From Planctomycetota bacterium (lineage in GTDB: Bacteria > Planctomycetota > UBA1135): a stretch of 64,000 nucleotides of DNA. The stretch is taken from NCBI GenBank assembly GCA_021776795.1, contig JAJFFC010000020.1, positions 310,001 to 374,000 of the forward strand, written 5' to 3'. The notes beneath the pieces were generated by a model that worked only from the letters and a program-made list of their open reading frames with translations, did no database searches and had not been told where the DNA came from. The position numbers and the translations under genes are program-made. Shown one piece after another: positions 1,023 through 11,754 of the stretch (position 1 is the stretch's first letter; each line of letters starts with the position of its first letter).

Positions 1023-3464
1023 GTGAACGAGGTCGCCTGCGACCACTGCGGCTTGCCGGTGCCGGCGGGGCTGTATCAGGAAACTCAGTCGGAGCAGTTT
1101 TGCTGTGCTGCTTGCCAGGTGGTGTATGAAACCCTGCATGCGCGCGGGCTCGACCGCTATTACGACTTAGTCGAGGACGGTGGTGACCCCAGTTTGCGTC
1201 GCGGCCAAGCCACCGGTCGCAAGTTTGCGGAGTATGACCACGAGAGCTTTCAAGAAGAACAAGTGCGGGTCGAACAGGGCGTCGCCAATATCGAGTTCTA
1301 TCTCGAGGGTGTGCATTGCGCCGCCTGCGTGTGGTTGGTCGAGAAGCTTCCGCAAGTTCTAGCCGGCGTGAAAGAAGCGCGTCTCGACCTTGGCCGACGT
1401 CGAGTGTGGTTGCGTTGGGACCCGCAGCAAGTGTCGCTTTCCGCCATTGCGATTGCTCTCGACCGCTTGGGCTACCCGCCTTACCCATTGCGCGGCCGCG
1501 AAGACCGCGAACAGCGTAGGCAGGAATCGCGCCGCGCATTAATCCGCATTGCCTTTGCCGGCGCGATTGCGGGAAACGTCATGGCGATTGCCTTTGCGCT
1601 TTATGGCGGTTACCTCGAAGGCATGGAGCAAGGCTTTTTGAGCATGTTCCGCTGGACCAGCTTGGGTTTGACCGCGCTGGCCTTGCTCGGTCCGGGACGT
1701 GTGTTCTTCCGTGGCGCTTGGGCTGCCCTGCGCACGCGCACACCGCATATGGATTTACCCATAGCGATTGGCTTAATGGCTGGTTTCTTCGGTGGCGCTT
1801 GGAATACCTGGCGTGTCGGCGGCGAGGTCTACTTTGAGTCAATCGCCATTCTGGTTTTCTTGTTGTTGGTCGGTCGCTTTCTGCAACAACGCCAACAACA
1901 ACGCGCTTTTGAGTCCTTGGAGATGTTGCATGCGGTCACGCCATCCCTGGCGCGGCGCATCACCTCAGATGGCAGCATCGAAGAGGTGCCCCTAACCGCT
2001 CTGGCCCTCGGCGAAGTGCTCGAAGTGCGCCAAGCGGAAACCATTCCTGCCGACGGCGTCTTGGTGTCGGCCGAAGCACGGCTGGACCTAGCTGTCCTCA
2101 GCGGGGAATCACGTTCGGTACGCATTAGGGAAGGCGACAAACTCTTCGCCGGAGCGGTCAATCTCGGCGGAACTATCCGTTGCAAGGTCGAAGCCCTCGG
2201 TAAAGCCAGTCGCGTCGGCCGTTTGATGGCCTTGGTCGAAGAACACGCCCGACGCCCTGCCGAAATCGTGCGCATCGCCGACCGCATGGCGGGTTACTTC
2301 ACGGTCATTGTGCTGTTGTTGGCAGCAGCGGGCGCCGCGTTTTGGACATGGCATGGTGGCGCCGACCCCATCGAGGTTGCGGTTTCCCTGTTGATCATTG
2401 CCTGCCCCTGCGCGCTTGGCTTAGCCACACCGCTGGCGGTGGTAGCCGCGGTCGGTCAAGCCGCACGCGAAGGCTTCCTCATTCAGGGTGGAGATGCCCT
2501 CGAGCGTTTGGCCCACCCCGGCCGCTTACTGCTGGACAAAACCGGCACCCTGACCGAAGCGCGATTGCAGCGCTTGTCATGGCAGGGGAGCGCGGCACTC
2601 GCCCGAGCCGTGGCCGTGGTCGAAGAAGAATCGACTCACCCCATTGCCCAGGCTTTGCGCGAAGCGGAAAGTGAAGCTCTTACTCAACACCCGCGACCGC
2701 AAGTCAAAGCCGTGGAGTTGATCGCCGGAATGGGTTTACGTGCCATGGTCGATGGCCGCCCGTTGTTGGTCGGAAGCCCAGCCTTCCTCGCCGCCGAGGG
2801 GCATGAACTTCCCGAACAAGACATCGCCCAAGTGCTCGGGCAAGGTGCCTCACCCATCGCGGCTTATTGGCAAGGCGAAGGTCTTGGCCTTGCGGCCATG
2901 GGCGACCCCATGCAAGCTGGCGCGCGCGCATCTCTCGATGCCCTCCGCGCCCAAGGCTGGCAACTCGAAATCCTCTCCGGCGATCACCCTCAGGTGGTGC
3001 AAGCCGTCGGCACTGCCCTTGGATTACCGGCAGAAGCCTGCCAAGGCAGCATGAGCCCAGAAGCCAAACTCGCTCACGTCGAACAAGCGGTGGCCGTCGC
3101 GCCACGCAAACCTTTAGAGCCAGTCGTCATGGTCGGCGACGGTTGGAACGATGCCGCCGCCCTCGCCGCCGCCGACGTCGGCATTGCCGTGCATGGCAGC
3201 GCCGAAGCCAGTCTCGCCGCCGCGGATATTTTCGTCGCCCGCCCCGGCATCGCCCGCTTGGTCCATCTCACCCAAGGCGCACGCAATACGCTCCGCCTCA
3301 TCCGCCGCAATCTCCTCGTCAGCCTTTCTTACAATGCACTCGGAGTGGGCCTCGCCCTCAGCGGTTTGTTAAATCCATTGATTGCTGCGGTGATCATGCC
3401 GGTCAGCTCCCTCACCGTCGTCAGTCTCGCCTGGCGCGGCCGCAGTTTCACTCGTCCAGTTTGA
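1023..3464 (+). CDS. ccoI: Copper-transporting P1B-type ATPase CcoI/FixI
   Basis: An 813-residue heavy-metal P-type ATPase that supplies copper for cbb3 oxidase assembly. The start is GTG at 1023. Order of elements: an N-terminal cysteine cluster (CDHCG, then FCCAAC near residues 6-31), an HMA domain with GVHCAAC (Cys99 and Cys102), membrane helices, the LSGES actuator motif, the CPC ion-binding motif (IIACPCALGLATP, about residue 460), the phosphorylation motif DKTGTLT (about 504), the STHP motif and GDGWNDA (about 704). The double cysteine module at the N terminus is typical of CcoI rather than CopA. ccoS, its usual neighbour, lies 5.9 kb away. The last codons (RGRSFTRPV) differ from those of a duplicated copy of its 3' end at 7427-7555, which suggests the present C terminus may have been replaced. 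Confidence 0.95.
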   Translation: MNEVACDHCGLPVPAGLYQETQSEQFCCAACQVVYETLHARGLDRYYDLVEDGGDPSLRRGQATGRKFAEYDHESFQEEQVRVEQGVANIEFYLEGVHCAACVWLVEKLPQVLAGVKEARLDLGRRRVWLRWDPQQVSLSAIAIALDRLGYPPYPLRGREDREQRRQESRRALIRIAFAGAIAGNVMAIAFALYGGYLEGMEQGFLSMFRWTSLGLTALALLGPGRVFFRGAWAALRTRTPHMDLPIAIGLMAGFFGGAWNTWRVGGEVYFESIAILVFLLLVGRFLQQRQQQRAFESLEMLHAVTPSLARRITSDGSIEEVPLTALALGEVLEVRQAETIPADGVLVSAEARLDLAVLSGESRSVRIREGDKLFAGAVNLGGTIRCKVEALGKASRVGRLMALVEEHARRPAEIVRIADRMAGYFTVIVLLLAAAGAAFWTWHGGADPIEVAVSLLIIACPCALGLATPLAVVAAVGQAAREGFLIQGGDALERLAHPGRLLLDKTGTLTEARLQRLSWQGSAALARAVAVVEEESTHPIAQALREAESEALTQHPRPQVKAVELIAGMGLRAMVDGRPLLVGSPAFLAAEGHELPEQDIAQVLGQGASPIAAYWQGEGLGLAAMGDPMQAGARASLDALRAQGWQLEILSGDHPQVVQAVGTALGLPAEACQGSMSPEAKLAHVEQAVAVAPRKPLEPVVMVGDGWNDAAALAAADVGIAVHGSAEASLAAADIFVARPGIARLVHLTQGARNTLRLIRRNLLVSLSYNALGVGLALSGLLNPLIAAVIMPVSSLTVVSLAWRGRSFTRPV
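3348..3439 (+). repeat. 3' end of ccoI, copy 1 of a 92-bp direct repeat
   Basis: This part of ccoI recurs at 7427-7518, offset 4079. By eye 88 of 92 positions match: three mismatches fall in the first 14 bases and one at 3425 versus 7504. The 63 bases 3362-3424 are identical to 7441-7503. Similarity ends abruptly at 3440. The repeat brackets the beta-helix gene and the first FG-GAP gene. Confidence 0.9.
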
Positions 3465-3479
3465 CAATCTGCAAACTGG
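3456..3479 (+). other. Inverted repeat over the ccoI stop codon
   Basis: CCAGTTTG (3456-3463) and CAAACTGG (3472-3479) form a perfect 8-bp stem with an 8-nt loop. It covers the ccoI TGA and lies just after the divergence point of the ccoI repeat. No T-run follows, so it is not a convincing intrinsic terminator. It could be an mRNA hairpin or a remnant of a junction. Confidence 0.55.
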
Positions 3480-3487
3480 CTGATAGT
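3461..3487 (+). promoter_or_regulatory. Possible promoter for the beta-helix gene
   Basis: A perfect TTGACA lies at 3461-3466 and GATAGT (four of six matches to TATAAT) at 3482-3487, spacer 15. The ATG at 3495 follows 7 nt later. The short spacer and weak -10 keep this tentative. Confidence 0.3.
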
Positions 3488-3494
3488 CTCAGAC

Positions 3495-5707
3495 ATGGTC
3501 TTTTCAACCACTTTATTACTTTGGGTGAGCACAATGCTGCCCCCCCCCCCCCAATTCAGACAACCGATGTAGTTGATGGTTCTGGAAGCACTCCCGGTGC
3601 TTTTACCTCGATTACCGGAGCTTTGGCGAGTTCAGCCAGTGGAGACACCATTCAAGTGAAAGGCATGGTGGATTTAGTAAGTAATCTTCCTGTTGGCTAC
3701 ACCGAAAATAATTTTTTTGGAGGGATAGGGGAAACATTCCCATTGGTGGTTCCTTCTGGAGTCACCATCGCTGGAACATCTGGTCCGGTATATGTGTACA
3801 GCCAGAATGCTTCGCCTCCGGCGGCAATTTTTGACCTCAATACTGGTGTCTCCCAAACTCGGATAGGAAATCTAGGCGTCCTTGGTGGGTCCATCGGAAT
3901 CAAAGTTCACGGTGGCAATGCCGATGTTCTCCTTCAGAAAATTACGTTTTCTAATAACGTAGTTGGATTCTCTTCCCTAGCGCAAGACACTTCCCTTCAT
4001 ACCTTGGAGATTACAGGCTGTACGTTTAAGGGACTGCTGCCTTCACTTGCGAATCCACCAGGCAGTTATGCTGAATCCGTTGGACTTAAGTTTGAAGCGG
4101 ATGAACTAACCTCTGGGCTCATCCCACGAATTGAAGCAACAGTCAATAATTTGGCTTCTGTCGGACCTTTTACGGGAATGGGCGGAGTCGGCTCTTATTC
4201 CGTCTCTGATTTACCATTTGGTAATGGATCTTCCGCATCCTGCTTGGTCCAAGTGTTAGCACAGGGGGATTCGCAAGAATTTCTAAGCCCCCTTGGCGTT
4301 GCGCAACCAATTGCCGAGGCAGTGGTTTCTCTAAATGGAGGTACCTTAGATGGTGGCCCAGACCCAGCGCATGCAGGCGGCTGGGACATTGGAGTATATA
4401 GCGCCATAAAATCAAAATTTTCTGGCACCTCCACCAATTACACAGCAGCAACAACCGTAACCCTAACTGGTGTTGTGCTTGAGGATTTCCGCGAGGCTGG
4501 AGTTCACGGTACAGCCAATGTCGGAACGAGGGGGATTGTGAACCTACGAGGACAGACGACGGTCCAAAACACTGGTTCCGGGTTAACTCACAACACTTCG
4601 GCCTATCCCATACACAATGGAGTCCACATGTTCTGCATTGAGGGGTATTTAGCCCTCTCATGCGACGATTCAAATTTCGGCAACAACCTTGGTTCTGGTG
4701 TATTCTTGAGCTGTCCGGGCACCCTAAATCAGGAAACCACCTTTGATATGGGCCTTTTCCTCGGAATTAGAAGGAGCAAAATGCATCTCAACGGAGAATC
4801 CGGCCTAGAACTCTTTTCGGGAGTGATTCCCCCCTCTGCGCCATTTTTCGCGCAGCCTGGAATTGTTGGTGGCACCTGGACCATTGCCTCAGATCCTGCC
4901 TACTCCGGGGAAGTATTACTTGTGGAAGGAGATGCCTCCGCAACTAAGCCCTATGGCCAAGGAGTCGTAGATCGGTGCGCAATCAGCAACAACGGCCGAA
5001 ATGGAATTCACGTTCGAGTTGAAGGCGATGAAAAACATTATGTATTCACTCGGTTCGTGAACAACATCATCTGGAATAACGAATGGGAGGGTTTCTTGAG
5101 TGAAATCTCACTTGCCCCAGGAGAGGCCGGAGTGGATGGAGTTATCCTAACTCCACTGGTTCACTGCACACTTGCTGGAAATGGTGATGTGACTGACGCC
5201 ACCATTGAATTTGCTGAACCTGCCAGCGGTGGTGGGACACGGGCTTATGCTTGGGCGCACCCCCTTGGAGGCAACCCAATCTTTGGAACGGAAATTGTGA
5301 ATACGATTATGCAAAGAAAAACTTCAGGAGATATTGATCTAGGACCAAATGTTGACGTGGGTCGCGGAGAGCCGATGTCCTCCTCGGCTATTCTGTCCCC
5401 GGACTTTATTGGCTTTGGCGGTGTTCGATTTACCACTTCGGCTCGAATTGGAGGGCTAAATGCTGCCTTATTGCCGGCATCTACGATTCATTCCACCCCT
5501 TATTCAGTTGGATCTCCGACATGGACCAGTCTCCTTGCGTCCCAGTTTTACTTGGATCCTGGCGGTTCCTTTATTTCCTCCTTTAAGGACGCGACACTCC
5601 TCTTCTTCCACTTGTTGGGTAATGAATGGGGTACGGATTTCTCTGGCAACAGCAGTAGGGCCTCAATGATTGATGGAACTGCTGATAAGGGGGCGGAGGA
5701 ACTCTAA
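3495..5707 (+). CDS. Exported right-handed beta-helix protein, out of frame at a poly-C tract
   Basis: The main frame (codons from about 3554 to TAA 5705-5707, roughly 717 residues) has many N/G-rich strand repeats such as NNGRNGIHV and NNIIWNNEWEG, the pattern of parallel beta-helix or DUF1565-type surface proteins. It has no good start in its own frame. ATG 3495 reads MVFSTTLLLWVSTMLPPPP, a plausible signal peptide, but in another frame: it passes through the C13 run (3540-3552) and meets TAG soon after. With 14 or 11 C the signal peptide would join the beta-helix domain (about 737 residues with 14 C). The gene may therefore be phase-variable, or the run length may be mis-sequenced. An in-frame TTG at 3521 is a weak alternative start with no signal peptide. 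The stop overlaps the next ATG (TAATG), suggesting coupled translation. Third-position A/T is higher than in ccoI. The substrate is unknown. Confidence 0.75.
3540..3552 (+). repeat. Poly-C tract (13 C) at the 5' end of the beta-helix gene
   Basis: Thirteen consecutive C residues lie inside the coding start, directly after ATGCTG. A tract of 3n+2 C (11 or 14) would join the ATG 3495 and ATG 3534 frames to the long downstream frame; 13 does not. Mononucleotide G/C runs of this length are classic slipped-strand contingency sites. Confidence 0.9.
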
Positions 5708-7383
5708 TGCTGCTATCACTTTTCCTTCAAATCGCTGCGCCCCAGTGGGTCGTGGATGACGTAATTCCTCCGGACCCTGTCTATACCTCGGAACAATCCT
5801 TCCAATGGGTGCGGTCCGTCCCATTAGGGGATTTGACTGATTCAGGCCGAAGCGCGTTCTTGAATAAGGGATATAGAACCATCCATACCCCTTTGTTTGA
5901 TCAGACTCTTAGCGCCAAGATATCAACAGGTTTTGGGAAGCCTGATTTTTCTTTCGCGGTGCCAGAAATTGGATCCATCCACGACAATTGGTACTCTTAT
6001 TTTGGCACTGGAACCTCGGTCTTAAAGAATCCGCAAGGACTGTTTGCCGTTGTGGTCAACCAGCCACAGCTCATGGTTGCTAATTTGAGCACGGGCCAGT
6101 TTCATACAAGAGTTGACCCGCCCATACCAGGTGGAGGGCTTCAGCCCCTTGCGCAATGGGATAGCCTTCACAACGCTGGAGACATCAACCTCGATGGTTT
6201 CGACGAGCTCCTTTACTACGGCCATCCCTCCCCAGGGTTGCAATGGGGGACTTACATCGGCTTACTGGACGGAGCTACCTTCCAAAGCCTTTGGCAATCC
6301 TATCTCCCCGATGGGTGGTTGCCCACGCCAATTTTCCCAACAGACATTGGAGAATGGCAAGACATCGACGGCGACCTGGTCCCGGATTTTGTGATTGGGA
6401 ATACCCTTTGGTATTTACAAACCTCCCAGTTAGAAGGCTATGTCGCTGCCCTGTCTGGTATTGACGGAACCTTGATTTGGGAAAACCTGAACCAAGCTTT
6501 GATTGGCGGGTCCGGAAAACTGGGTAGTGACCTGACTGGAGATGGAATCCGTGAGATTTTTGTGGCTGGAGATGGCGATCAGATTGAACTCATCAACGGC
6601 AGTAATGGCTTAAGCCTTTGGAATAAGTCCCTCCAAGATTTTTTGCCGTGGTTGCCGCTGGGTTTTTCGTTTCCGAGATTTGATCACCCTCCCATGTTCG
6701 GTCCAGTAGATGACAGCGGATTGGTGGATGAGCTTTACATTCCGGTTAATGGAAACTTCACCGGCGAGGCTTTACGGCATCAATACATTTTCACTCTAGA
6801 CCCATTAACCGGCATCATTCTCAGGATGGATATCTTGCCCTACTCGTTTGAGCCCTGGTCGCCAGACACCATTGGCGGAATACGGACGCCTGCCCTGCAA
6901 TACCTTGGCGACATCGACCGCGACGGCCTACCTGAAATCGCCAGAGCGGTGAATACACCAAGCTATTCTCCACCCAACTGGCCAGGATGGGCGGATAGCA
7001 ACATTGTCATGGGCCAGGAAACCCTGGATTTCCCCACTCAACTCCCACTGAGCGGTAGTCACACCGCCCATATCGCGATTCCTGGCGCCGCTGGGCGATC
7101 AGGGCAGCTTATCTTTAGCAACGACTTCCACCGGGAAGATGGATTCTCTCCAGATGGCTGGCGCACTGGGCTAGTGAGCAATGACTTGCTGGATTGGAGC
7201 AAGAGCCAGGGCATTGGAGTGGCATTAGATGCCTCCGGCGAGGGCCAGGTGACCTTTCAGCTTCCCAATCAGCCGGCGCTCATCGGCCAATCCTTGTATG
7301 CCCGCTTTATGGTTCCTGATTTAGCAAGGCCAGGCTCCATCTGGACCATGAGCAGTTTGGGATATGGCGAAGTGATTCCATAG
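5707..7383 (+). CDS. Exported FG-GAP/VCBS-type repeat protein (paralogue A)
   Basis: A 558-residue protein with a short hydrophobic N terminus (MLLSLFLQIAAPQ) that looks like a signal sequence. It has four calcium-loop-like motifs typical of FG-GAP/VCBS beta-propeller blades: DINLDGFDE (about residue 159), DIDGDLVPD (219), DLTGDGIRE (275) and DIDRDGLPE (402). The C-terminal 120 residues form a separate beta-rich module ending in [14 protein letters not shown]. The start overlaps the stop of the beta-helix gene by one base, so the two are probably translated together. It aligns with paralogue B (7627-9303) at a constant offset of 1920 with equal length, and is a more distant match to paralogue C (10081-11754). 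No function is known; a surface or extracellular binding role is inferred. Confidence 0.88.
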   Translation: MLLSLFLQIAAPQWVVDDVIPPDPVYTSEQSFQWVRSVPLGDLTDSGRSAFLNKGYRTIHTPLFDQTLSAKISTGFGKPDFSFAVPEIGSIHDNWYSYFGTGTSVLKNPQGLFAVVVNQPQLMVANLSTGQFHTRVDPPIPGGGLQPLAQWDSLHNAGDINLDGFDELLYYGHPSPGLQWGTYIGLLDGATFQSLWQSYLPDGWLPTPIFPTDIGEWQDIDGDLVPDFVIGNTLWYLQTSQLEGYVAALSGIDGTLIWENLNQALIGGSGKLGSDLTGDGIREIFVAGDGDQIELINGSNGLSLWNKSLQDFLPWLPLGFSFPRFDHPPMFGPVDDSGLVDELYIPVNGNFTGEALRHQYIFTLDPLTGIILRMDILPYSFEPWSPDTIGGIRTPALQYLGDIDRDGLPEIARAVNTPSYSPPNWPGWADSNIVMGQETLDFPTQLPLSGSHTAHIAIPGAAGRSGQLIFSNDFHREDGFSPDGWRTGLVSNDLLDWSKSQGIGVALDASGEGQVTFQLPNQPALIGQSLYARFMVPDLARPGSIWTMSSLGYGEVIP

Positions 7384-7426
7384 AAAGGCAGTTGTCTTAG
7401 GATTGCCCCAACATAAGTCTACCCTT

Positions 7427-7555
7427 GGCCTCACTCTCACCGGTTTGTTAAATCCATTGATTGCTGCGGTGATCATGCCGGTCAGCTCCCTCACCGTCGT
7501 CAGCCTCGCCTGGCGCGGGCATAGCTTTCTGAATGGGTCTAAGGAGAGATTTTGA
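7427..7555 (+). pseudogene. Duplicated 3' fragment of ccoI
   Basis: The fragment reads in the ccoI frame from GLTLTGLLNPLIAAV to AWRGHSFLNGSKERF and ends at TGA 7553-7555. The first 92 bp (7427-7518) match 3348-3439 with four mismatches; after that the two C termini differ. It lacks a start and all catalytic regions. Either it is the displaced original end of ccoI after insertion of the 3.4-7.4 kb segment, or it was carried in with that segment. It lies between two FG-GAP paralogues and just upstream of a TATAAT box. Confidence 0.88.
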
Positions 7556-7563
7556 ACCTAGTG

Positions 7564-7569
7564 TATAAT
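7564..7569 (+). promoter_or_regulatory. TATAAT -10 box upstream of FG-GAP paralogue B
   Basis: A perfect TATAAT lies 57 nt before the chosen ATG 7627 and 18 nt before the GTG at 7588. No good -35 is visible at the usual distance. It follows the stop of the ccoI fragment directly. Confidence 0.5.
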
Positions 7570-7626
7570 TGACGGTGCTCATTTCGCGTGCCTAAGGGCT
7601 CGGCGGTTCCTTCAGCGCCCTTTTCT

Positions 7627-9303
7627 ATGCTCGTAATTCTCCTCCTTCAAATCGCTTCGCCCCAGTGGGTCGTGGATGATGTGGTTCCGCCAGATCCGGT
7701 GGTTGCATCAGACCAATCCTTTCAATGGGTTCGTTCTGTACCGTTAGGCGACTTAACCAATTCTGGGCGCAGCGCCTTCATGAATAAGGGTGCCAGGAAC
7801 ATCCATGGCCCTGTTTTCAATCAAATTCTTAGTGGCAATATTTCAAGCGGCTTTGGTTTGCCAAATCTTTCTTTTGATGTGCCGCGCATCGGCGTGGTTC
7901 ACAATAATTGGTACTCCTATTTTGGCACCGGTACCTCAGTGCTACAAAGCCCACAGGGCCTCCTAGCGGCGGTAGTCAACCAACCTCAATTGATGATTGC
8001 TAATTTGAGTACCGGACAATTCCAGGGAAGGGTGGATCCCCCCATTCCTGGCGGAGGCCTATTACCTCTCGCGCAATGGGACAGTCTCCACAATGCTGGA
8101 GACATCAATCAGGATGGTGTTGATGATTTGCTTTACTACGGGCATCCATCGCCAGGGCTGCAATGGGGGACCTACATTGGGTTGCTCGATGGAGCGACCT
8201 TCCAAAGCCTTTGGCAAACCTATCTTCCTGATGGCTGGTTACCTACGCCAATTTTCCCCACTGACATTGGGGAATGGCAGGACATTGATGGTGACTTAGT
8301 CCCAGATATGGTGATTGGAAATACCTTGTGGTATTTGCAAACCACCCAATTAGAAGGTTATGTCGCCGCCTTGTCCGGCCTAGATGGCAGCATTATTTGG
8401 GAAAACCTGAATCAAGCGTTGATCGGTGGATCGGGGAAATTGGGCAGCGATCTCACAGGCGATGGCATCCGTGATGTTTTTGTTGCAGGCGAAGGCGATC
8501 AAATTGAACTGATAAACGGTAGTAATGGGTTAAGCCTTTGGAATAAATCGTTACAAGATTTCGTACCTTGGGTGCCCTTTGGATTTGTTCCGTATCGATT
8601 TGATCACCCACCAATGTTTGGGCCGCTTGATAGCCTGGGATCCGTCCAGGAACTCTATATTCCTGTTCGTGGATACTTTTCAGGGGAAGCATTTGAGCAT
8701 CAGTACATTTTTACCCTGGATCCATTGACCGGTGTCATTCTTCGCATGGACACCCTGCCCTACTCCTTTGAGCCCTGGGCGCCGGATACGATTGGCGCGT
8801 TGCGCATGCCTGCCCTGCAATATTTAGGTGACATTGATCGCGACGGCCTACCTGAAATCGCCAGAGCGGTGAATACACCAAGCTATTCTCCACCCAATTG
8901 GCCGGGCTGGGCGGATAGCAACATTGTCATGGGACAGGAGACCCTGGATTTCCCCACTCAACTCCCACTGAATGGGAATCACACCGCCCATATCGCGATT
9001 CCTGGCGCCGCTGGGCGCTCAGGACAGTTGCTCTTCAGCAACGACTTCCATCGGGAAGATGGATTCACTCCAGATGGCTGGCGTACCGGACTGGTGAGTA
9101 ATGGCTTACTCGACTGGAGCAAACAGCAGGCACTCGGCGTGAGCCTTGATGCCTCTGGCAATGGTCATTTGAGCTTCCAGCTTCCCAATAAGCCGGGTCT
9201 GATTGGGCAGATGCTCTACGCACGCTTTATTGTTCCTGATGTAATCGATCCTGGCACCATCTGGACCATGAGTAGTCTTGGCATTGGTCAAGTAATTCCT
9301 TAG
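7627..9303 (+). CDS. Exported FG-GAP/VCBS-type repeat protein (paralogue B)
   Basis: A 558-residue protein. ATG 7627 is preferred over GTG 7588 because it gives [14 protein letters not shown], aligned residue for residue with paralogue A and equal in length. Calcium-loop-like motifs are [27 protein letters not shown] and DIDRDGLPE; the C-terminal module ends [14 protein letters not shown]. The DNA is collinear with 5707-7383 without visible indels. Much of it differs at third positions, but there are identical blocks, for example 59 bp at 8839-8897 versus 6919-6977, which suggests gene conversion. It is preceded by the ccoI 3' fragment and followed by ccoS. It is probably exported; ligand and partner are unknown. 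Confidence 0.88.
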
Positions 9304-9325
9304 GTCTGCGCTTTCTCTGAGGCTC

Positions 9326-9331
9326 TACAAT
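9326..9331 (+). promoter_or_regulatory. TACAAT -10-like box for ccoS
   Basis: TACAAT is followed by 15 nt and the ccoS ATG (9347), which would leave a leader of about 9 nt. No -35 consensus is evident. A separate promoter would be needed here because ccoS has been cut off from ccoI. Confidence 0.4.
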
Positions 9332-9346
9332 GAGGGCGGTTTCACC

Positions 9347-9535
9347 ATGACCGTCCTCTACATCGTCCTGCCTTTGGCGCTGCTCATCGCTGCCGTCGCG
9401 GTGGGGGCCTTTGCGTGGTCGGCCAAAAGCGGACAGCTCGATGATCTCGAGACTCCAGCGCAACGCGCGCTCCTCGACGATGATCCGGTCGACCCTTCCC
9501 CGGCTGACGACCCCCAAGAAAGCACCAAAGCATGA
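9347..9535 (+). CDS. ccoS: cbb3-type cytochrome oxidase assembly protein CcoS
   Basis: A 62-residue protein with one N-terminal membrane helix ([20 protein letters not shown]) and the CcoS signature in which [19 protein letters not shown] follows the helix. CcoS is a small membrane protein needed to insert cofactors into cbb3 oxidase. Length and domain pattern are normal. Normally it directly follows ccoI; here 5.9 kb of unrelated genes lie between them. Its stop overlaps the start of the YcxB-like gene (ATGA, 9532-9535), so the two are translationally linked. Confidence 0.92.
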
Positions 9536-10080: not shown

Positions 10081-11754
10081 ATGCTTGCACTGCTCCTACT
10101 TCAAATTCCCAATGGTCCATGGGTTGTTGAGGATCTAATTCCGCCTGAACCGACTCCCCTCCTGGACGAGTCCTTTCAATGGACTCACTCCACAGCCTTA
10201 GGAGACATTTTTGGCTCCGGAAGATCCGGCTTCCTGAGTAAAGGATATCGAGATATTCATGGCCCCTCATGGGAGGCTGTCATGACCTGCCGTGTTTCCG
10301 GCGGATTTGGCCAACCAGAATTTACCTTTGCACTACCGGATCGATATGGGTTTGAAGATCGTTGGTTCGCCTCTGAGGTGTCTACGACCACGGTTCTGAA
10401 GACTCCCACTGGACTAGAAGGCTATGTCGCCAATGGTTCACGATTATTGGTCATCGATTTTCCAAGTGGTTCGCTCCAGGGTTGGATTGATGGCATCGCT
10501 CCATTTGGAATGACCCCTTTAGATCATTGGAACACCTTAATGAGTGCTGGGGATGTCAACCTTGATGGCTATGACGACCTCCTGTTTCATGGTCATCCTC
10601 ATTACAGATGGGCGGCCTATTTTGGAGTTATCGATGGCGCCACGAAACAAGTTCTTTGGCAGCGGGCTTTGCACCATGCGAATGGGCTACTCGAAGTTCC
10701 CATTCAGCCTCAAGAAATGGGTCAATGGCAAGACATCGACGGTGACCAGATTCCTGATTATCTAATTGGTTTGAATCAATGGTCAGAAACCGCCTTGGAC
10801 TATGAAGGATTCATTGTTGCGCTTTCCGGTATAGACGGTTCTACCATTTGGAGACATGCCGCCAGGCGGCGTTTAGTCGGGGCGGGCATCCTTGGTGGAG
10901 ATTTCAATGGAGACGGCATTAGCGAAGTTCTCATGCGCCAGGGAAGCAATGAGATTTTCCTCTTGGAAGGAAGTCGTGGAGATTTGTTATGGCGCAAAAG
11001 CATTAGTGATTTTTCGCCTTGGCTCCCTCCAGGAGTTCAATGGTCCTATCTTTCCCACCCCGCTTTTTTCACCACAAGCGCAAGCGGGTTTCCAGGTGGA
11101 GAGATCATTGTCATTGTGGAAGGTGCCGAAATGGGGGAGTTGTTCTCTACCCAATTCATCTTTGCACTGGATTCGGTTTCTGGGCACATCTTGCGAATGG
11201 ATCGATTCCCATCCTTCCTCTGGCCGTGGGCCACCGACACCACTGGCACCATTCGGTTTCCCATGGCTCAATACCTAGGCGATATCGATCGGGATGGATT
11301 ACCTGAGATTAGTCGTGCGGCAAATACACCGAGCCTAGATGACCCAAACTGGTTAGGTTGGGCGGCCAGTAACATCATAATCGGGCAAGAAACACTGGCG
11401 CTTCCCGACCAATTGCCGCTTCAGAGCAATCACGTTGCCCAAGTGGCCATCCCTGGGGCAGCAAATATGTCAGGGCAGTTACTTATCAGTGATGAATTTA
11501 GCCGTGACCATGGGGTGTCACCAGATTCTTGGAGATTAGGCTTAGTGGATGGAGACCTTCTTGCATGGAGTAGGGATGAGGGCATTCGGTTGACTCTCGA
11601 CGCCTCAGGAAATGGCCAACTTAATTTCCAACTCCCCAACAAGCCAGGTTTGGTCGGGAAGCTTCTTTACTTTCGCTTTATCGTGCCAGAACCTGGGCAG
11701 CCTGATTCGATTTGGACCATGAGCAGCCTGGAGCAGGCAGTGGTAATCCAATAA
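10081..11754 (+). CDS. Exported FG-GAP/VCBS-type repeat protein (paralogue C)
   Basis: A 557-residue homologue of paralogues A and B. ATG 10081 (MLALLLLQIPNGPWV) is preferred over an upstream TTG/ATG because it matches the N termini of A and B. The four acidic loops are DVNLDGYDD, DIDGDQIPD, DFNGDGISE and DIDRDGLPE. The C-terminal module is kept and ends IWTMSSLEQAVVIQ. It is clearly more diverged than A is from B. It lies directly after the ccoS-YcxB pair, so paralogues flank ccoS on both sides. A lipoprotein gene follows after one base. Function unknown; surface exposure inferred. Confidence 0.87.
   Translation: MLALLLLQIPNGPWVVEDLIPPEPTPLLDESFQWTHSTALGDIFGSGRSGFLSKGYRDIHGPSWEAVMTCRVSGGFGQPEFTFALPDRYGFEDRWFASEVSTTTVLKTPTGLEGYVANGSRLLVIDFPSGSLQGWIDGIAPFGMTPLDHWNTLMSAGDVNLDGYDDLLFHGHPHYRWAAYFGVIDGATKQVLWQRALHHANGLLEVPIQPQEMGQWQDIDGDQIPDYLIGLNQWSETALDYEGFIVALSGIDGSTIWRHAARRRLVGAGILGGDFNGDGISEVLMRQGSNEIFLLEGSRGDLLWRKSISDFSPWLPPGVQWSYLSHPAFFTTSASGFPGGEIIVIVEGAEMGELFSTQFIFALDSVSGHILRMDRFPSFLWPWATDTTGTIRFPMAQYLGDIDRDGLPEISRAANTPSLDDPNWLGWAASNIIIGQETLALPDQLPLQSNHVAQVAIPGAANMSGQLLISDEFSRDHGVSPDSWRLGLVDGDLLAWSRDEGIRLTLDASGNGQLNFQLPNKPGLVGKLLYFRFIVPEPGQPDSIWTMSSLEQAVVIQ

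What the first reader, a model, noticed from the sequence alone, without database searches (positions are those of the whole stretch)
3495..3560. Poly-C tract separates a signal peptide from a beta-helix protein: possible phase-variable surface gene
Seen: ATG 3495 encodes a hydrophobic signal-like start (MVFSTTLLLWVSTML) that enters a run of 13 C. In this frame translation soon stops; the long beta-helix frame continues from another phase. A tract of 11 or 14 C would make one exported protein of about 737 residues. Known: G/C mononucleotide runs at 5' ends of surface genes are classic ON/OFF contingency sites. Inference: the gene is OFF in this sequence and the FG-GAP gene coupled to it (TAATG) may switch with it. 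A mis-called homopolymer is the main alternative.
Basis: partly seen in the sequence, partly recalled or inferred. Interest (0 to 1): 0.75.

Follow-up and report, generated by a model that had tools for sequence, protein, structure and literature searches.

The report
Repeat-tract switch of planctomycete surface operon
In an uncultured planctomycete, a run of 13 cytosines sits between the hydrophobic start and the body of a gene for a large, likely surface protein, and related genes carry other repeats at the same spot, so the run likely turns the gene on and off by slipping when DNA is copied.

Summary
Confirmed. A 13-C run (3540-3552) lies between a hydrophobic leader (ATG 3495) and a 717-codon frame in another phase; it is the only C/G run above 10 in the 3.26 Mb genome. 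The gene belongs to a Planctomycetota family, predicted right-handed beta-helix, with an FG-GAP gene directly behind it in 17 of 20 loci. At the same place, the leader end, 15 of 25 members carry a clear non-triplet repeat: C7-C13, (CTCGG)n or (TCGCAGC)n; the other 44.7 kb of these genes has five runs, all of 7. Two paralogues in the same genome carry the 7-mer, found nowhere else in 26 family genomes. An ATG lies in the long frame in 6 of 16 repeat-bearing members, about the third that random phase predicts, against 9 of 10 without. A 95%-identical metagenome protein reads through the tract in frame. Best reading: a slipped-strand contingency locus that works like Neisseria opa, several per genome, in a phylum where I found no such report. 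Not shown: slippage itself, surface location, and the OFF state of this copy, which one miscounted base would change.

The parts
3495..3539 (+). Leader-coding stretch, ATG 3495, MVFSTTLLLWVSTML
   Evidence: Sequence; hydrophobic peak 2.1 on the Kyte-Doolittle scale over 9 residues
3540..3552 (+). 13-C tract, the proposed slippage site
   Evidence: repeats at the same place in relatives
3554..5707 (+). Long frame of 717 codons plus stop, predicted right-handed beta-helix protein
5707..7383 (+). FG-GAP gene starting on the stop of the beta-helix gene (TAATG), likely translationally coupled
   Evidence: Pfam FG-GAP_3 3.1e-06; 17 of 20 family loci have this gene behind the beta-helix gene
1023..3464 (+). 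CcoI-like copper-type P-ATPase gene directly upstream
   Evidence: Pfam
7427..7527 (+). Second copy of the 3' end of the ATPase gene (93 of 101 bases), mark of a duplication
7627..9303 (+). Second FG-GAP gene, 83.5% identical, without a beta-helix partner
9347..9535 (+). FixS/CcoS gene, in relatives directly behind the ATPase gene
   Evidence: Pfam FixS 1.6e-17
10084..11754 (+). Third FG-GAP gene, 49% identical to the first

Best explanation
The 13-C run joins a hydrophobic leader to the body of a beta-helix gene in the wrong frame, and it likely works as a slipped-strand ON/OFF switch: gain or loss of C during replication would put leader and body in frame (ON) or out of frame (OFF). Inferred steps: in the ON state an exported right-handed beta-helix protein of about 737 residues is made, and the FG-GAP gene, whose start overlaps its stop, is translated with it; in the OFF state the ribosome stops after 25 codons and both products drop. 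The same arrangement recurs at several loci per genome, so a population would be a mixture of cells showing different combinations of these pairs. Shown here: the tract, its place, the frame break, unrelated non-triplet repeats at the same place in relatives and paralogues, and members both in frame and out of frame. Not shown: slippage, expression, coupling and surface location.
For: Sixteen of 25 family members with a 5' end have a non-triplet repeat in the 150 bases around the leader end (one of them, L035, only a weak 4-mer at a contig edge); the rest of these genes (44.7 kb) has five, all runs of 7; expected 0.4 from that rate. Three unrelated units (C, CTCGG, TCGCAGC) sit at the same site; the 7-mer is found at two places in 26 genomes, both this family in the window's genome; the 5-mer at four places, at least three of them this family. 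A 400 kb sample of the own genome has no 5-, 7- or 8-mer array and no run of 9 or more. In-frame ATG: 6 of 16 with a repeat, 9 of 10 without (Fisher P 0.014, or 0.003 if the tenth, cut by a contig end, is left out). P0001, 95% identical, is continuous through the tract. Each unit is stop-free in all three frames. FG-GAP genes of the same loci have no repeat at their 5' end (0 of 17), so the repeats are not a general habit of leaders.
Against: No reads and no second allele of this strain. None of the four 5-mer or 7-mer members tested has an in-frame ATG (L227 and L233, cut by contig ends, look the same by eye), so some may use another start or be decayed. All three family members of G013 and the one of G017 have no repeat. 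In G008 and G017 long C/G runs are common elsewhere (56 and 197 of 10 or more; in G008 most of the 30 inspected lie in long open frames), so the C runs of G008 are weak evidence. The window's leader has no positive charge at its start and no clear cleavage site, and no signal-peptide predictor was available. L024 has leader-like starts in two frames.
Confidence: 0.8

Rival explanations
1. Miscounted homopolymer: the tract exists but the assembly is a base off, the gene is simply ON and the tract does not switch.
For: Long C runs are error-prone in sequencing; one base more would bring this copy in frame. All sources are draft MAGs.
Against: It does not explain why different repeats, 5-mers and 7-mers included, gather at this one site, nor the avoidance of such runs elsewhere in this genome.
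Confidence: 0.09
2. Proline codons in the leader: a Pro-Pro stretch near the cleavage site written in CCC gives C runs without any switching role.
For: Shorter runs (C7-C9) encode motifs such as APPL in frame in L013, L018 and L021.
Against: Runs of 10-13, out-of-frame members and the 5-mer and 7-mer arrays are not explained; the partner FG-GAP leaders have no repeat (0 of 17).
Confidence: 0.04
3. Recoding: RNA polymerase or the ribosome slips on the tract, so that every cell makes some joined protein and the DNA does not need to change.
For: Frameshifting on homopolymers is known in bacteria (PMC3711429, passages).
Against: That source names runs of A or T for transcriptional slippage; 5-mer and 7-mer arrays are not recoding sites; tract lengths differ among relatives instead of being kept.
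Confidence: 0.04
4. Pseudogene: the frame break is simple decay.
For: A broken frame here; L020 has an in-frame TGA inside and L032 is broken at an internal G9.
Against: The 717 codons are open, aligned over their length with relatives and modelled with confidence; the break sits exactly at the recurrent repeat.
Confidence: 0.03

Closest known systems
Neisseria opa genes (CTCTT pentamers in the leader-coding region)
   Same: Non-triplet repeat in the stretch that codes for the leader of an exported surface protein, several loci per genome, ON/OFF by frame (PMC3960869, passage).
   Different: Opa proteins are outer-membrane barrels (recalled); here a predicted beta-helix with an FG-GAP gene behind it, another phylum, and three repeat units at the same site. 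Switching is shown for opa, not here.
Neisseria pilC genes (mononucleotide G/C tract, 9-20, within the reading frame)
   Same: Mononucleotide tract in a pilus gene switching it by frame (PMC5953494, passages); that the tract lies in the signal-peptide stretch is recalled.
   Different: Unrelated protein and phylum.
Right-handed beta-helix proteins of phage tailspikes, AlgE/AlgG epimerases and the adhesin PfbA
   Different: 8-16% identity in the 50 rows shown; a shared fold says nothing of activity; Foldseek itself gave one match at E 0.001 or better.

Membership tests
Simple-sequence contingency locus (translational phase variation) | Repeat of non-triplet units in the 5' coding stretch, far above background | tested here: met
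Simple-sequence contingency locus (translational phase variation) | Alleles or homologues in both ON and OFF frames | tested here: met
   Homologues only, not alleles of one strain: in-frame ATG in 6 of 16 repeat-bearing members
Simple-sequence contingency locus (translational phase variation) | Tract length differs between close relatives at one locus | tested here: inconclusive
   P0001 (35 of 717 residues differ) reads ML-PPP-I in one frame, about 8 C if the flanking A is kept, against 13; protein only, DNA and leader not seen
Simple-sequence contingency locus (translational phase variation) | Reversible switching in a clonal population | not testable with these tools
   No reads or culture
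Neisseria opa family | CTCTT pentamers in the leader | tested here: not met
   The window has C13; pentamers exist only in G015 and are CTCGG
Neisseria opa family | Outer-membrane barrel protein | tested here: not met
   The model matches beta-helices over residues 1-647
Right-handed beta-helix proteins | Pfam Beta_helix above cut-off | tested here: not met
   15 bits against 25.9; two relatives carry PF13229 in the precomputed column along with one more (P0005, P0007, P0009)
Right-handed beta-helix proteins | Predicted fold | tested here: met
Exported surface protein | Cleavable signal peptide and surface location | tested here: inconclusive
   Hydrophobic leaders across the family; no signal-peptide predictor, no localisation data

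The most novel reading that the evidence does not exclude
Uncultured Planctomycetota run a multi-locus contingency system: paired beta-helix/FG-GAP surface operons, each with its own slippage tract in the export leader, where C runs, pentamers and heptamers arose independently at the same site, so that each cell shows a random combination of surface proteins. This would be the first phasome of the phylum, built on one gene position that was hit again and again.
Probability: 0.6. Interest if true: 0.82.

Novelty: new member of a known kind. Interest (0 to 1): 0.68.

Why it matters
[quoted passage not shown] Here genomes titled Planctomycetota, for which my searches listed no such report, show several repeat-bearing members of one exported family per genome: three in the window's genome, four in G011 and at least three in G015. 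One family with three unrelated repeat types at one site makes the birth of contingency loci testable, and counts of tract length in existing metagenome reads could settle it without culture. Whether these bacteria are free-living is not known from my calls.

Tried and rejected
Pfam on the long frame: Beta_helix below cut-off, so the fold was predicted. Poly-C alone as a signature: in G008, 30 of 56 runs of 10 or more were inspected and most lie in long open frames; in G017 many of the runs listed lie near contig ends; so place and unit type were used instead. In G011 (27 runs of 9 or more) 15 stretches were inspected; most are not at leaders. Runs of 10 behind hydrophobic starts of other genes (L043, L061) were seen by eye and not counted. 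A 17-row profile was too divergent for the named-genome scan; an 8-row one gave 7 loci. The origin of these MAGs: the search found only unrelated papers. Catalytic residues were not tested, so no enzyme activity is claimed. A planctomycete paper holding 'phase-variable' uses it for a microscope image (PMC5845749, passage).

Rows dropped before counts: of the 30 matches, five were left out (L003, L030: 5' end not in the match; L028, L031, L033: inner or rear pieces); L098 is the same gene as L029; L100, L081, L092 and L099 are distant or partial. L030 is but not. L227 and L233 are in neither. L032's internal G9 lies just behind the stretch counted for it; counting it would make six repeats in the rest of the genes.

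Full report
WHAT IS THERE. The window is 64 kb of a 3.26 Mb, 31-contig genome, 89% complete. Positions 3540-3552 are 13 C. Upstream, ATG 3495 opens MVFSTTLLLWVSTML; in that frame a stop follows after 25 codons. The 717-codon frame 3554-5704 is in another phase; 11 or 14 C would join them. The next gene starts on the stop (TAATG, 5705-5709). No other run of 8 C/G or 9 A/T lies in the window. The genome has one other C/G run of 10 or more and 15 of 8 or more, where an independent-base model expects about 264: it avoids such runs, yet has 13 here.

THE RECURRENT REPEAT. With one definition of simple repeats I scanned the 5' end (-110..+40 of the profile start) of the 25 of 30 matches that have one. 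Sixteen have a non-triplet repeat there: C13 (window, L024), C12 (L025), C10 (L012), C9 (L018, L019, L020), C8 (L014, L015, L021), C7 (L013), TCGCAGC x3.6 and x7.1 (L002, L004), CTCGG x6.2 (L017, L023) and a weak 4-mer at a contig edge (L035). The other 44.7 kb of these genes has five, all runs of 7, and the 32.2 kb upstream has six. An internal G9 of L032 lies just outside the counted stretch. No repeat was found in L005, L011, L016, L022, L026, L027, L029, L032 and L034. The 7-mer (three or more copies) occurs at two places in 26 genomes, both this family in the window's own genome. The 5-mer (four copies) occurs at four places, all in G015: L023, L017, L227 (this family by its start, cut by the contig end) and L233 (13 copies, cut, undecided). 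A 400 kb sample of the own genome that holds none of these loci has no 5-, 7- or 8-mer array of three copies and no run of 9 or more. So three of the four own-genome members with a 5' end (window, C7:174456, C27; not the fragment at C7:192) carry a repeat, of two kinds.

PHASE. Whether an ATG within 135 bases upstream lies in the long frame: yes in 6 of 16 repeat-bearing members (L013, L018, L020, L021, L024, L025; L030 is included here, L035 is not), no in 10 (window, L002, L004, L012, L014, L015, L017, L019, L023, L030); yes in 9 of 10 others, the tenth (L035) being cut 78 bases upstream. Fisher P is 0.014, or 0.003 without L035. One third is what a freely varying tract gives. L024 is ambiguous, with leader-like starts in two frames; without it the count is 5 of 16. 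In five out-of-frame members (window, L012, L015, L019, L030) the hydrophobic leader is plain in another frame; in L014 it starts at a GTG by my reading. None of the four 5-mer or 7-mer members is in frame, which a larger sample should test. Each unit is stop-free in all three frames and codes the same repeated peptide in each.

ALLELES. The protein search gave 13 relatives. P0001 differs at 35 of 717 residues, 30 of them behind residue 518, with 114-518 identical. It starts ML-PPP-IQTT, continuous through the tract in the ATG frame: about 8 C if the flanking A is kept. Its DNA and full leader were not seen. P0004 and P0006 start with a full leader; the other ten start behind it, as gene callers do when a leader is out of frame, though contig ends would do the same.

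SITE. FixS follows the ATPase gene within about 40 bases in 9 of 11 relatives' loci; one of the others is cut by the contig end and one is a more distant ATPase. In the window 5.9 kb separate them. The ATPase 3' end recurs at 7427-7527 (93 of 101 bases), followed by a second FG-GAP gene without a beta-helix gene. The cassette was likely inserted between ccoI and ccoS and partly duplicated.

LITERATURE. Opa pentamers in the leader stretch (PMC3960869, passage) and pilC tracts (PMC5953494, passages) are nearest. Searches pairing planctomycetes with 'phase variation' (16 papers, 15 listed) and 'phase-variable' (9) listed none about it in this phylum by title or abstract; passages were seen of PMC4060949, PMC3711429 and PMC5845749, the last using the word for a microscope image. 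Broader searches added none. Subscription papers are mostly not held. The open question on pathogens is from PMC11868660 (passages).

VERDICT. A slipped-strand contingency locus is the simplest account of different repeats at one site of one family. Direct evidence of length change in one strain is missing, and the OFF state of this copy is uncertain by one base.

Noticed in passing
window 3348-3448, 7427-7527 and 3465-9346: A beta-helix/FG-GAP cassette stands between the ATPase and FixS genes, which adjoin in 9 of 11 relatives' loci; the ATPase 3' end is repeated (93 of 101 bases) before a second FG-GAP gene, a sign of insertion and tandem duplication.
   Followed up: partly
L206 / G000:C29:324406-324415, minus strand: The genome's other C run of 10 lies 18 bases before the ATG of an ORF starting MNVTSLAGALCAFALVAAPLGAQ, a likely exported protein; the run may act on initiation or transcription.
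   Followed up: partly
L152 / G000:C25:19298: A C9 run ends 5 bases before an ATG that opens MFRTSSLLGVLA, another possible start-site repeat.
   Followed up: no
L043 (G021) and L061 (G041), near position 1502: C10 runs directly behind hydrophobic starts of other ORFs in related genomes, in frame by eye; the switch may not be limited to the beta-helix family.
   Followed up: no
L189 / G011:C73:12990-12999: A beta-helix family gene is split between two frames at an internal G9, a possible second switch site inside the gene.
   Followed up: no
G008 and G017 whole genomes: 56 and 197 C/G runs of 10 or more, against 0-21 in the other 24 genomes of the family; in G008 many lie in long open frames, which is odd for GC-rich coding DNA or points to the assembly.
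   Followed up: partly
P0001 versus window 3554-5704: The two proteins are identical over residues 114-518 and differ at 30 of 199 residues behind, which suggests recombination between alleles or paralogues.
   Followed up: partly
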